From NCBI GenBank assembly GCA_900317825.1, contig ONIH01000007.1, positions 1 to 57,089 of the forward strand: DNA of 57,089 nucleotides. The letters are read 5' to 3'. A model generated the notes under the pieces. It did no database searches and was not told the DNA's origin. It saw only the letters and a list, made by a program, of their open reading frames with translations. Every line of letters begins with the position of its first letter. Within the stretch, counting starts at the first letter, position 1. Made by a program: the position numbers and the translations under genes. Shown here piece by piece: positions 70 through 40,012 of this stretch. This stretch comes from an uncultured Lachnospiraceae bacterium (GTDB taxonomy: Bacteria; Bacillota; Clostridia; Lachnospirales; Lachnospiraceae).

Positions 70-2010
<1,941 letters not shown>

Positions 2011-2030
2011 TTACAAGTCAAATCTATTAT

Positions 2031-2153
2031 ATGAAGTTACACTGCACTAAATTCGAGCTACGCTTCGCTTGCTCTCATTAAGTTGCAGGTAACGACTTTT
2101 TCACTAACCTCATGCTGCGCTTACGCTTGCATTCGCTAAGTGAAATAATGTCA
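2031..2153 (-). repeat. Two-hairpin dispersed element, copy A (between grpE and dnaK)
   Basis: About 123 bp closely matching 38668-38791, with one single-base length difference in a loop. It begins, in the transcribed direction, exactly at the TGA stop codon of grpE. It folds as two hairpins on either side of a GGTAACGAC linker. Hairpin 1 has outer arms CTGCA/TGCAG (2042-2046, 2084-2088) and inner arms GAGC/GCTC (2055-2058, 2071-2074). Hairpin 2 has outer arms CACT/AGTG (2102-2105, 2139-2142) and inner arms ATGC/GCAT (2112-2115, 2129-2132). Loops share a CGCTnnCGCT-like core. Inner-stem bases differ from copy B but remain paired, so the fold appears to be selected. Function unknown. Confidence 0.85.
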
Positions 2154-2762
2154 GTTAGCAACCTTTACCATCGCGTATCTTACGACCTTATCATGGTAGG
2201 TATAACCTTTCTGTAAGACCTCGACGACTTCCTGCTCTCCCTTATCCGCATCATCCACATGCATTACTGCGTTGTGGAAGTTCGGATCGAATTTCTTTCC
2301 TTCGGCCTCTATCTCTTTGACCCCGAGTTCATCGAGTCCGTGGAGAAGCTGCTTATATATAGCAAGCATTCCTTTCTGGAAGGCATCCTCTGTGTCTTCC
2401 TTTACGTCTGCCAGGCCTCGCTCGAAGTTATCGATGACCGGAAGGACTTTTGCTATGACATCGCTTGCTCCGGCATCGTACATAGAAGACTTCTCTTTTT
2501 CTGTACGCTTACGGAAGTTATCGAACTCTGCCATCTGGCGAAGGACCTGATCCTGAAGTGACTTGATCTTCTCGTCACGCGGATCTTCCTTCTTTTTATC
2601 CTTTTTCTTATCAGGCTTTTTATCTTCTTTATCTGTTTTCTCCTCAGAAGCCTTATCCTCTTTCTTTTCATCAGAGGTTTTATCCTTCTCAGGAGCTTTT
2701 TCCTTTTCTTCAGAAGTATCTTTTTTTACTTCTTCATCCTTCTTTTCTTTCTCTTCGCTCAA
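2151..2762 (-). CDS. grpE: Nucleotide exchange factor GrpE
   Basis: Nucleotide exchange factor that releases ADP from DnaK. The 203-residue protein has a very charged Lys/Glu/Asp N-terminal ~65 residues, then the GrpE coiled coil (LQDQVLRQMAEFDNFRKRTE) and the C-terminal beta wing (GVKEIEAEGKKFDPNFHNAV and YTYHDKVVRYAMVKV). The start is TTG, chosen because AGAGG lies about nine bases upstream and no in-frame ATG precedes the conserved domain; the hrcA stop is 12 bases away. The charged N-terminus is longer than in many GrpE proteins. Co-transcribed with hrcA and dnaK and thus presumably under HrcA/CIRCE control. Confidence 0.96.
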   Translation of the reverse strand: MSEEKEKKDEEVKKDTSEEKEKAPEKDKTSDEKKEDKASEEKTDKEDKKPDKKKDKKKEDPRDEKIKSLQDQVLRQMAEFDNFRKRTEKEKSSMYDAGASDVIAKVLPVIDNFERGLADVKEDTEDAFQKGMLAIYKQLLHGLDELGVKEIEAEGKKFDPNFHNAVMHVDDADKGEQEVVEVLQKGYTYHDKVVRYAMVKVAN

Positions 2763-37892: not shown

Positions 37893-38645
37893 TTACTTGT
37901 TGTAATTTACGATCTGTCCGAAGTCAGGCTTCAGTGAAGCTCCGCCGATAAGTCCGCCATCGATATCAGGCTTTGCGAGAAGCTCCTTGCAGTTACCGGC
38001 ATTCATTGATCCGCCGTACTGAATTCTGATCTTCTCAGCTGTGTCTGTATCATAGATGTCTGCGATAGTCTCACGGATAGCCTTGCAGACTTCTTCTGCC
38101 TGATCAGCTGTAGCTGTCTTACCTGTTCCAATAGCCCAGATAGGCTCATAAGCGATGACCATAGAAGCAGCCTGCTCCTTTGTCACACCTGCGAGATCAA
38201 GTTTGATCTGCATACGGATCCAGTCAAGTGTAACTCCCTCTTCTCTCTGCTCAAGTGACTCACCACAGCAGAGGATAGGTGTAAGACCTGACTCAAATGC
38301 CTTCTTTACTTTCTTGTTCAGAAGAGCATCATCCTCGAGGAAATATCCTCTTCTCTCTGAATGTCCGAGGATAACGAACTCTACTCCAGCGTCTTTGAGC
38401 ATTGCTGCTGAGATCTCACCGGTGTAAGCGCCCTTCTCCTCGAAGTACATATTCTCAGCGCCGACATGGACGTTAGTTCCCTTAACAGCGTTAGCTACAG
38501 GAACGATGTCGATAGCCGGTACACAGTAAACTACATCTACATCCGGATTATTAACCAGAGGTTTTAGAGTCTCTACAAGCTTTAATGCCTCGCTCGGAGT
38601 CTCATTCATCTTCCAGTTTCCGGCGATAATTTTCTTTCTTGCCAT
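37893..38645 (-). CDS. tpiA: Triosephosphate isomerase
   Basis: Interconverts dihydroxyacetone phosphate and glyceraldehyde 3-phosphate. The 250-residue TIM barrel has [14 protein letters not shown] with Asn/Lys substrate ligands, VILGHSERR with the catalytic His, [17 protein letters not shown] with catalytic Glu, and the phosphate loops [11 protein letters not shown] and GLIGGASL. The ATG at 38645 matches the family N-terminus, although the GGAGG is 12 bases away, long spacing caused by a repeat-derived GACTTGTAAC stretch also found upstream of dnaK. Downstream of pgk in a gap-pgk-tpiA run. Confidence 0.97.
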
Positions 38646-38667
38646 TTTGTTACAAGTCCTCCATATA

Positions 38668-38791
38668 ATGAAGTTACACCGCACTAAATTCGCACTACGC
38701 TAACGCTTGTGCTCATTAAGTTGCGGGTAACGACTTTTTCACTAAACTCGAACTTCGCTAACGCTCGTTCTCATCAAGTGAAAGAATGTCA
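38668..38791 (-). repeat. Two-hairpin dispersed element, copy B (between pgk and tpiA)
   Basis: About 124 bp homologous to 2031-2153. In the transcribed direction it starts at the TGA stop codon of pgk, exactly as copy A starts at the stop of grpE (TGACATT in both). Hairpin 1: outer CCGCA/TGCGG (38679-38683, 38722-38726), inner GCAC/GTGC (38692-38695, 38709-38712). Hairpin 2: outer CACT/AGTG (38740-38743, 38777-38780), inner GAAC/GTTC (38750-38753, 38767-38770). Each inner stem, and the outer stem of hairpin 1, differs from copy A by compensatory changes. Confidence 0.85.
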
Positions 38792-40012
38792 TTTCTCATC
38801 TGCTGCTGCGATTCCAGGAAGCTCTTTGCCCTCGAGGAATTCAAGTGAAGCGCCGCCGCCTGTAGAGATATGGCTCATCTTGTCGCCAAGTCCCATCTGG
38901 TTTACAGCCGCAGCTGAATCACCGCCGCCGATGATAGTAGTAGCATCAGCATCCGCAAGAGCCTGGGCTACTTTGAGAGTTCCTGCTGCAAGAGTAGGGT
39001 TCTCGAATACACCCATAGGTCCGTTCCATACTACTGTCTTTGCAGAAGCTACTTCCTTAGCATACATCTCAGCAGTCTTAGGTCCGATGTCGCAGCCCTC
39101 CCTATCATCAGGAATGGCTGTGATATCTACTACTGTAGTATCCACAGCAGCATCGATAGGATCCGGGAAGTCCTTTACTACTACGGCATCTACAGGAAGA
39201 AGCAGCTTCTTTCCGAGCTTCTTTGCCTTATCCATCATCTCTTTGCAGTAATCGATCTTTGTATCATCGCAGAGAGACTTTCCTACTGAATAACCCTGAG
39301 CCTTAATGAAAGTGTATGCCATTCCGCCACCGATGATAAGGGTGTCACACTTCTCAAGGAGATTTGAGATAACGTTCAGCTTATCAGCTACTTTTGCTCC
39401 ACCGAGGATAGCAACGAATGGACGTACAGGATTCTCGACAGCCTTTCCAAGGAAGTCGATCTCTTTCTGCATCAGGTAACCAACTACAGCCGGCTTACCC
39501 TCTTTGCGAAGCTCTTCAGCTACACCTACGTTTGAGCAGTGAGCTCTGTGAGCTGTACCGAAAGCGTCGTTTACGAATACGTCTGCAAGAGAAGCGAGAT
39601 CCTTTGAGAAAGCCTCGCCGTTCTTTGTCTCCTCCGGACGGAATCTGGTGTTCTCGAGAAGGATAACGTCTCCATCCTTCATAGCTGCAACTGCTGCCTT
39701 TGCATTAGGTCCTACGACCTCAGGATCAGCTGCGAACTTTACTTCCTGGCCAAGAAGTTCTGAAAGTCTCTTTGCTACAGGAGCAAGAGTCTTTGTCTTC
39801 TTGTCTTCTTCTGTCTTTACTTTGCCCAGGTGTGAGCAGAGGATAACCTTTCCTCCGTCAGCGATCAGTTTCTTTATAGTAGGAAGAGCTGCCACAAGTC
39901 TGTTCTCATCTGTGATCTCGCCGTTCTTTAAAGGTACGTTAAAATCGCAGCGGCAGAGAACTCTCTTGCCTTTTACATTTATGTCATCGACTGATTTTTT
40001 ATTAAGTCCCAT
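38789..40012 (-). CDS. pgk: Phosphoglycerate kinase
   Basis: Makes ATP from 1,3-bisphosphoglycerate in glycolysis. The 407-residue protein has [65 protein letters not shown], the nucleotide-binding [15 protein letters not shown] and the C-terminal [20 protein letters not shown]. Follows gap in the same direction after an 82-base gap containing two hairpins. The ribosome site AAAGGAG is inside one of them. Confidence 0.98.

What the first reader, a model, noticed from the sequence alone, without database searches (positions are those of the whole stretch)
2031..2153. Dispersed two-hairpin element at operon stop codons with compensatory changes (pairs with 38668-38791)
Two copies, 36 kb apart, lie inside two unrelated operons (grpE-dnaK and pgk-tpiA). 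Each begins at the upstream TGA (TGACATT in both) and ends before the next gene. Direct comparison shows paired differences: inner stems GAGC/GCTC against GCAC/GTGC and ATGC/GCAT against GAAC/GTTC, and the hairpin 1 outer stem CTGCA/TGCAG against CCGCA/TGCGG, while the loop core and CACT/AGTG ends stay constant. This is covariation, so the RNA or DNA fold is under selection. It may tune expression or stability between highly expressed genes, or be a mobile fold-back.
Basis: seen in the sequence. Interest (0 to 1): 0.78.

Follow-up and report, generated by a model that had tools for sequence, protein, structure and literature searches.

The report
Folded mobile repeat at stop codons
Many bacteria of one gut and rumen family carry copies of a small folding genetic element that often begins exactly on a gene's stop signal inside important operons, and its fold has been kept although its letters changed.

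Summary
The two window copies (minus strand, 2027-2153 and 38664-38791) belong to a dispersed family: 11 matches in this genome, matches in 9 of 13 genus genomes, 58 in one, and in 127 of 397 genomes of the family, which named contigs identify as Lachnospiraceae. Related hairpins occur in a few other Clostridia. Rfam has no match at the element. Two hairpins with tandem G.A pairs covary: 29 of 37 pairs change on both sides in 17 sequences, 37 of 37 in 82. In 111 of 198 distinct matches the element starts in one of two fixed registers on the stop codon of the same-strand upstream gene. About half of 120 such genes are ribosomal proteins (S8 25, S14 16, S13 6). Empty sites, in-frame insertions, tandem copies and a genome with 23 of 25 matches out of register show mobility. 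Best reading: a non-autonomous mobile element of the REP/ERIC kind, new in having the stop codon built into its fold. Its effect on termination or mRNA stability is inferred.

The parts
2027..2153 (-). Copy 1 of the element, whole model match (grpE-dnaK gap)
   Evidence: R1 match 97.2 bits, E 6.2e-18 (a seed sequence of R1)
2151..2153 (-). grpE stop codon TGA = element positions 1-3; its G and A begin the outer stem of hairpin 1
   Evidence: ORF 2151-2762 minus; sequence; register rule
2094..2152 (-). Copy 1 hairpin 1
   Evidence: fold and alignment A2 with pair counts
2036..2093 (-). Copy 1 hairpin 2, joined to hairpin 1 with no spacer
2027..2035 (-). Copy 1 3' flank TTCATATAA
2011..2017 (-). 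Copy 1 downstream CTTGTAA motif, shared with several genus copies
38664..38791 (-). Copy 2 of the element, whole model match (pgk-tpiA gap)
   Evidence: R1 match 100.1 bits, E 1.4e-18 (a seed sequence of R1)
38789..38791 (-). pgk stop codon TGA = element positions 1-3
   Evidence: ORF 38789-40012 minus
38732..38790 (-). Copy 2 hairpin 1
38673..38731 (-). Copy 2 hairpin 2
38650..38672 (-). Copy 2 3' flank TTCATTATATGGAGGACTTGTAA, which includes the GGAGG that precedes tpiA
   Evidence: sequence
2151..2762 (-). grpE, upstream gene of copy 1
   Evidence: ORF; GrpE in 2 of 120 upstream genes; C-terminus shared with genus orthologues
70..1977 (-). dnaK, downstream gene of copy 1
   Evidence: ORF, translation, orthologues; name recalled from the protein sequence
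38789..40012 (-). pgk, upstream gene of copy 2
   Evidence: ORF, translation; PGK in 4 of 120 upstream genes
37893..38645 (-). tpiA, downstream gene of copy 2, start taken at the ATG after the GGAGG (the mechanical ORF starts earlier)
   Evidence: sequence; name recalled from the protein sequence

Best explanation
This is a family of small (about 125 nt) non-autonomous mobile elements, found mainly in Lachnospiraceae, whose transcript folds into two abutting hairpins, each with tandem G.A pairs and a small capped tip. A copy enters, or is kept, exactly at a gene's stop codon: the stop reads T|GA... or TA|G..., so the element supplies its last bases and the upstream protein is unchanged. In place it is a structured intercistronic spacer. 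A ribosome terminating on the stop should open only the weak outer stem and the 4-nt loop, while the inner part of hairpin 1 and all of hairpin 2 stay folded; after release the outer stem closes. The likely consequences are protection of the upstream 3' end and separation of neighbouring cistrons at the level of termination and mRNA stability. Shown: family, fold, covariation, register, gain and loss between species. Inferred: the effect on ribosomes and mRNA, the geometry on the ribosome, and how it moves.
For: Covariation: 29 of 37 pairs with both-side changes in 17 sequences, 94.3% of cells paired against at most 39.3% when slid; 37 of 37 in 82 model-aligned matches; de novo RNAalifold finds 32 pairs, 26 with both-side changes. 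Register: 111 of 198 distinct matches have a same-strand ORF ending at offset 0 (TGA 66) or -1 (TAG 41, TAA 4); with ORFs of at least 79 codons, 91 of 135 stops within 60 nt of 192 elements fall on these two offsets, while 59 opposite-strand stops are spread over 42 offsets. An independent sequence pattern gives 48 of 64 matches in register. Mobility: filled and empty grpE-dnaK and sufB-sufD sites; in-frame insertion into three paralogous genes set beside an uninterrupted one; tandem copies and a mosaic element at sufB. Constraint in place: at orthologous junctions 24 of 29 changed pairs (0.85-0.95 element identity) and 187 of 241 (below 0.85) still pair, counting each element once per bin; simulated neutral change keeps 28-33%. 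G.U exceeds A.C 191 to 62 when four misfitting pairs are left out, a choice made after seeing the counts, as expected if the coding-strand RNA is the folded form.
Against: In the genome with most matches (G011) only 2 of 25 aligned matches are in register (two more, L063 and L069, lie 2-3 nt after a stop), so spread does not need a stop. Nine of 198 matches put the stop at +4 or +5, inside the internal loop, which spoils an exact ribosome-footprint geometry. Copies also lie at rRNA ends, between tRNAs, and in L116 and L130 on the strand opposite to the tRNA genes around them, where no ribosome terminates. With all pairs kept, G.U (207) barely exceeds A.C (177). Recent changes (identity at least 0.95) keep pairing in only 7 of 12. 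Many double changes at one junction look like replacement by another copy, which weakens the in-place selection argument. Matches were chosen by score, not at random. There is no expression, structure-probing or ribosome data.
Confidence: 0.6

Rival explanations
1. Purely selfish: the fold is needed only for movement (recognition by a transposase or an RNA intermediate), and stop codons are simply a harmless or preferred insertion site.
For: Many matches and arrays in G011; insertions in coding sequence; recent changes keep pairing in only 7 of 12; remnant-like or divergent element starts at rpsH (L301, L302, L317, read by eye).
Against: Older orthologous junctions keep pairing well above neutral; exact register and same-strand position in 110 of 174 matches outside G011; 25 and 16 of 120 upstream genes are rpsH and rpsN in many genomes.
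Confidence: 0.3
2. RNA-processing or segmental-stability site: the hairpins are cut (RNase III, RNase Y) or shield 3' ends, setting different levels for neighbouring cistrons, as proposed for NEMIS and ERIC.
For: Same-strand ORF starting within 200 nt downstream in 87 of 122 by crude ORF calls; copies at the 3' end of 23S rRNA and next to tRNAs in rRNA operons; precedents in PMC2229807 (passages) and PMC3446304 (passages).
Against: Stems are interrupted by tandem G.A and internal loops, which from general knowledge makes them poor RNase III duplexes; stability alone would not explain a fixed register at the stop codon.
Confidence: 0.2
3. Intrinsic terminator or attenuator.
For: Hairpins between genes.
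Against: No run of T follows hairpin 2 in the consensus (TTCMTTA); a same-strand gene follows in most cases; L050 carries a separate hairpin with a T run after the element and L127 a separate hairpin (T run beyond the printed stretch not checked).
Confidence: 0.03
4. A cis-regulatory binding site for one regulator, such as a ribosomal-protein autoregulatory RNA.
For: Many copies follow rpsH and rpsN.
Against: The same element lies at atp, suf, pgk, grpE, murF-ddl, aconitase-family, flagellar and rRNA junctions; copy number and sites change within a genus; no Rfam leader matches it.
Confidence: 0.05

Closest known systems
REP/BIME elements of enterobacteria
   Same: Dispersed, hairpin-forming, extragenic, some close downstream of stop codons; those within 15 nt of a stop are reported to stall ribosomes or lower translation (an earlier study as cited in PMC12306157, passages read).
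   Different: REPs are 20-40 bp palindromes; most fall in GTAG- or CGTC-tagged families (PMC3733652, title and start of abstract in a search listing). This element is about 125 nt, two hairpins with tandem G.A pairs, no such tag in its consensus, and the stop codon lies inside it at fixed registers.
ERIC, YPAL/RU-2, NEMIS/Correia and RPE small mobile repeats
   Same: About 100-170 nt, mobile, folded, ERIC co-transcribed with neighbours and tied to mRNA stability, some carrying open frames fused to genes (PMC2229807, passages read).
   Different: No terminal inverted repeats or target duplication seen here by eye; fixed stop-codon register; other taxon.
bcr repeats of the Bacillus cereus group
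   Same: Firmicute dispersed repeats, some with conserved secondary structure, in UTRs and between genes of operons; bcr3 in a transcript correlates with its decay rate (PMC3446304, passages read).
   Different: No sequence or structure comparison was made here; stop-codon anchoring does not appear in the passages read.
Mobile/repeat sequence candidates such as MRSC-65-2 (PMC11109978, passages read)
   Same: Multi-copy structured intergenic motifs.
   Different: MRSC-65-2 is described with a UYCCGG repeat; the words Lachnospir-, Roseburia and Blautia do not occur in the main text.

Membership tests
REP (RAYT-associated) | GTAG or CGTC tag at the hairpin foot | tested here: not met
   Consensus of A2 begins TGACC, hairpin 2 begins GTTCT, 3' flank TTCMTTA, read by eye
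REP (RAYT-associated) | Y1 (RAYT) transposase in the genome | tested here: inconclusive
   Y1_Tnp in 7 of 13 genus genomes; none found in G000, G010 or G012 (11, 20 and 21 element matches), of which G000 and G010 are only 90% and 83% complete
REP (RAYT-associated) | Multi-copy, extragenic, hairpin-forming | tested here: met
   exception: copies inside three genes of G094
MITE / ERIC class | Terminal inverted repeats and target-site duplication | tested here: inconclusive
   None seen by eye at element ends or in filled versus empty sites; no dedicated search, and divergence could hide short duplications
MITE / ERIC class | Mobile: filled and empty sites, insertions in genes | tested here: met
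MITE / ERIC class | Mobilising enzyme in trans | not tested
   Only Y1_Tnp was searched; no partner enzyme identified
Intrinsic terminator | Hairpin followed by a T run | tested here: not met
   Base frequencies of the tails of 198 copies
Any Rfam 15 family | Match to a covariance model | tested here: not met
   None at the window copies at gathering; on six element loci up to E 5 three matches, all away from the element
Self-cleaving ribozyme or group II intron relic | Catalytic core and cleavage or splicing activity | not testable with these tools
   No catalytic Rfam family matched at the element; activity needs a bench test

The most novel reading that the evidence does not exclude
A mobile structured RNA that is targeted to stop codons as such: the stop codon is a working part of its fold, and the terminating ribosome (or the mRNA held by it) is what the element senses or uses, either for site choice or for a switch that opens the outer stem at each termination event and resets it afterwards, giving bacteria a portable termination-coupled module across ribosomal-protein operons.
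Probability: 0.15. Interest if true: 0.92.

Novelty: new variant of a known kind. Interest (0 to 1): 0.72.

Why it matters
Small dispersed hairpin repeats have been known for decades, but whether the host uses them has stayed open. Here is a family, without a match in Rfam, with very strong covariation and a sharp positional rule: the stop codon is built into the element. It sits in ribosomal-protein, ATP-synthase, glycolysis and chaperone operons of a major gut family. That makes a clean experiment possible: one stem, one stop codon, compensatory mutants, measure termination, 3' ends and downstream expression. It also goes with stop-codon identity: no TGA at 21 rpsH genes judged to lack it, against 3 of 9 with it or a remnant. 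The same hairpin design in other Clostridia families suggests an older RNA module behind it.

Tried and rejected
Rfam at gathering and relaxed thresholds: nothing at the element. RAYT/Y1 transposase as the mover: not supported, but not excluded. Plasmid carriage: no match to one canonical copy. Viral contigs: two pattern matches that on reading lack the rest of the element, so chance. One pattern match in a Melioribacteraceae MAG (L269): in register with no gene stop, not followed further; by my own estimate, not a call, one or two chance matches are expected in that collection. K-turn and hammerhead resemblances were considered from memory and dropped.

A reading that I dropped on checking: I had taken the matches outside the family (5 of 13 matching genomes in a class sample of 391) for chance. 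Read in full, L104, L105 and L107 do contain the same hairpin design (stem, GA, 4-bp stem, GA or AA, short stem-loop, GAN, 4-bp stem, GA, stem), in L107 in a tandem array, but not at a stop-codon register; matches in G675 and G702 were not read. So the element is mainly, not only, in Lachnospiraceae. A second model on 295 genomes of the order gave 16 matching genomes, all of the same family; how many of the 295 belong to other families was not shown.

Literature: ten full-text searches listed no title or abstract start that describes this element. Passages only were seen of five papers: PMC12306157, PMC3446304, PMC2267715 (no Lachnospiraceae named), PMC2229807, PMC11109978. The library lacks most subscription papers and supplements were not open, so this is no proof that it is unpublished.

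Counts to read with care: matches for the register statistics were the strongest plus chosen others, not a random sample; 8-9 candidates per genome were scored; 47 of 198 matches had no qualifying ORF near; five rows of the 82 in A3 are the matches outside the family named above. L084 and L142 were left out of the Pfam alignment (120 of 122 references), and its output shows 25 of 63 families. One search's counts held duplicate loci and were replaced.

Full report
What was checked. Both window copies are real and lie on the minus strand, the strand of their genes: 2027-2153 in the grpE-dnaK gap and 38664-38791 in the pgk-tpiA gap. Each begins with the T of the upstream TGA. Their single-sequence folds beat all of 200 shuffles.

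Anatomy. An alignment of 17 full copies gives, 5' to 3': stop-codon bases that start a 4-bp outer stem (GACC/GGTC, GGCC/GGCC and others), a 4x2 internal loop (GAAA/GA in 55 of 82 rows of alignment A3), a stem, a tandem G.A pair (GA/GA in 70 of 82), a 4-bp stem, a 2x3 loop (commonest GA/GAA, 31 of 82), and a short stem-loop. Hairpin 2 follows with no spacer, has the same inner design (GA/GA in 63 of 82), and is followed by TTCMTTA. Some genus copies add TTGTAA at a fixed distance (10 copies at offset 8, 2 at offset 10). The window copies are a sub-type whose outer loop is AUUC or AUUA against AA and whose hairpin 2 has a Watson-Crick stretch where the canonical type has a further G.A tandem (read by eye).

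Covariation. With the structure named by me, 94.3% of cells pair, 29 of 37 pairs show changes on both sides, and sliding the partners by 1-3 columns drops pairing to 28.5-39.3%. RNAalifold on its own predicts 32 pairs, 26 with both-side changes. On 82 model-aligned matches, 37 of 37 pairs have both-side changes and 94.2% of cells pair (this alignment is fitted to the structure). Three pairs in the middle of hairpin 1 are set wrongly for one sub-type and fail often.

Distribution. Own genome 11 matches, six of them not in the seed. Genus: 9 of 13 genomes at E <= 0.01, with 58, 21, 20 and 14 matches in G011, G012, G010 and G003 (neighbouring or partial matches count singly). Family: 127 of 397 genomes at E <= 0.001 under strict filters with 8 candidates scored per genome. 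Class sample: 13 of 391 genomes, 8 of the same family and 5 of four other families, weaker. Of those five, the three loci read (L104, L105, L107) show the same hairpin design with its G.A tandems but not the stop-codon start. Order sample with a second model: 16 of 295 genomes, all same family. A DNA pattern in the named genome collection found 61 stretches, among them Mediterraneibacter, Faecalicatena contorta, Blautia schinkii and many Lachnospiraceae MAGs, and one Melioribacteraceae MAG. Contig lengths shared with handles G364, G198, G306 and, in the window's own genus, G008 identify the family as Lachnospiraceae.

The stop-codon rule. In 198 distinct matches, a same-strand ORF of at least 60 codons ends at offset 0 with TGA in 66, at -1 with TAG in 41 and with TAA in 4; 7 more have TAG/TAA at +5 and 2 TGA at +4; 47 have no such ORF near. 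With ORFs of at least 79 codons, 91 of 135 same-strand stops within 60 nt of 192 elements fall on the two registers, while 59 stops of opposite-strand ORFs are spread over 42 offsets, never more than 5 at one. The independent pattern sample gives 48 of 64; the pattern holds the bases after the T, but not the reading frame or the gene. In the outer stem the 3' strand follows the stop: AACC/GGTT after TAA in L089 and in L303. In 120 upstream genes Pfam finds S8 in 25, S14 in 16, S13 in 6, SufB 5, PGK 4, L11 4, S7 3, AtpE 3 and others; the ribosomal-protein families shown add up to about 60. In this genome the junctions include grpE-dnaK, pgk-tpiA, atpG-atpD, sufB-sufD, murF-ddl, rplK-rplA (names partly recalled from protein sequences), an aconitase-family pair, a P-II gene before a permease, an S30AE-family gene, an amine-oxidase pair, and the 3' end of 23S rRNA.

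Outside protein genes. In L013, L039, L057 and L015 the element follows the 3' end of 23S rRNA, and in L039 and L057 its first seven bases are the last seven of the Rfam 23S match; in L017 it lies between tRNA-Ile and tRNA-Ala, in L101 between tRNA-Ala and 23S. In L116 and L130 it lies between tRNA-Asp and tRNA-Leu on the opposite strand. These copies cannot act on translation termination.

Gain, loss and movement. At grpE-dnaK, 3 of 12 genus genomes with dnaK carry the element (stops TGA, TGA, TAG) and 9 do not (7 TAA, 2 TGA, read from the printed sequence). At sufB-sufD, G010 carries two in tandem, the second matching the single copy of G000; the G007 copy combines the hairpin 1 of the G009 copy with a hairpin 2 and tail like that of G000. 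This looks like re-insertion at the stop followed by collapse of the tandem. At rpsH-rplF in 30 genera (30 loci returned of 71 genomes with a match), six have clear model matches in the gap (L303-L307, L324), L317 a weak partial one, and L301 and L302 remnant-like or divergent starts seen by eye; the other 21 have TAA 16, TAG 5, TGA 0. In G094 three paralogous genes (AAA/PD-DExK type, name recalled) contain the element in frame where a close paralogue does not. In G011, 23 of 25 aligned matches are out of register, and several form arrays.

Is the fold kept in place? I compared elements at the same junction in different species. Using each element once per bin, changed pairs still pair in 7 of 12 at identity >= 0.95 (8 site pairs), 24 of 29 at 0.85-0.95 (8) and 187 of 241 below 0.85 (30). 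Random change keeps 28-33%. Paired sites change somewhat more slowly than unpaired ones in every bin. So broken pairs exist among recent changes but do not pile up. The caution is replacement: at sufB the upstream flanks are 82-97% identical while stems differ by many both-side changes and hardly any one-sided ones, the mark of swapped elements rather than of stepwise change. G.U exceeds A.C, 207 to 177 over all pairs and 191 to 62 without four misfitting pairs left out afterwards, which leans to the RNA of the coding strand as the selected form.

Mechanism. The position of the stop inside the first base pair and the same-strand rule point to translation termination. From general knowledge of ribosome geometry (recalled, not tested), a ribosome with the stop in its A site covers about the outer stem and the 4-nt loop, so the inner hairpin would start near the mRNA entry. 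REPs within 15 nt of a stop are reported to stall ribosomes (cited in PMC12306157, passages); ERIC is tied to mRNA stability (PMC2229807) and bcr3 to decay rate (PMC3446304; passages read). I therefore favour a termination-proximal structural spacer that protects or separates cistrons, carried by a mobile element. The copies out of register in G011, those with the stop at +4/+5, and those in rRNA and tRNA operons show that the geometry is a strong preference, not a requirement.

Verdict. Observation confirmed; interpretation supported on covariation and mobility, open on function. It works like REP/ERIC-class repeats but is not a REP by tag and was not seen to have the ends of a MITE. New variant of a known kind.

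Noticed in passing
L301, L302, L303, L304, L306, L307, L309, L316, L317, L326, L330: just upstream of rplF: A second conserved motif, ACTGAAAACAGA or a close variant, a short hairpin, then about CCGAAAATTTAAGT and AGGAGG before rplF, in about 11 of 30 genera (by eye). No Rfam match at gathering in the nine of these loci that were scanned. Possibly an unlisted ribosomal-protein leader.
   Followed up: partly
L104 1501-1626, L105 203-316 and 1501-1614, L107 1501-1748 (other Clostridia families): Hairpins of the same design (stem, GA, 4-bp stem, GA/AA, short stem-loop, GAN, 4-bp stem, GA, stem) outside Lachnospiraceae, in L107 in a tandem array. Homology not tested.
   Followed up: partly
L331, L332, L333 versus L336 (G094): The element is read in frame inside three paralogous genes; the inserted peptide is nearly identical while the host genes differ more, suggesting spread of the insert among paralogues.
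   Followed up: partly
L010 and L027 (G009, G007): A one-hairpin form (5' half of hairpin 1 type, 3' end of hairpin 2 type), in L027 upstream of and antisense to a gene that looks like pheS (gene name recalled).
   Followed up: no
L039, L057, L013, L015, L017, L101, L116, L130: Copies in rRNA and tRNA operons; in L039 and L057 the element starts on the TGATC of the 23S rRNA 3' end, with a matching GATC outer stem; in L116 and L130 it is antisense to the tRNA genes.
   Followed up: partly
G011 loci L030, L032, L035, L139, L143, L147: Arrays in which elements or single hairpins are chained or nested; short repeats such as GTGAGAGGTGTGAG lie near some G011 copies (L034, L035).
   Followed up: no
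L003/L046 (murF-ddl) in this genome: A copy with hairpin 1 cut down to a minimal stem-loop while the GAAA/GA loop and outer stem remain.
   Followed up: no
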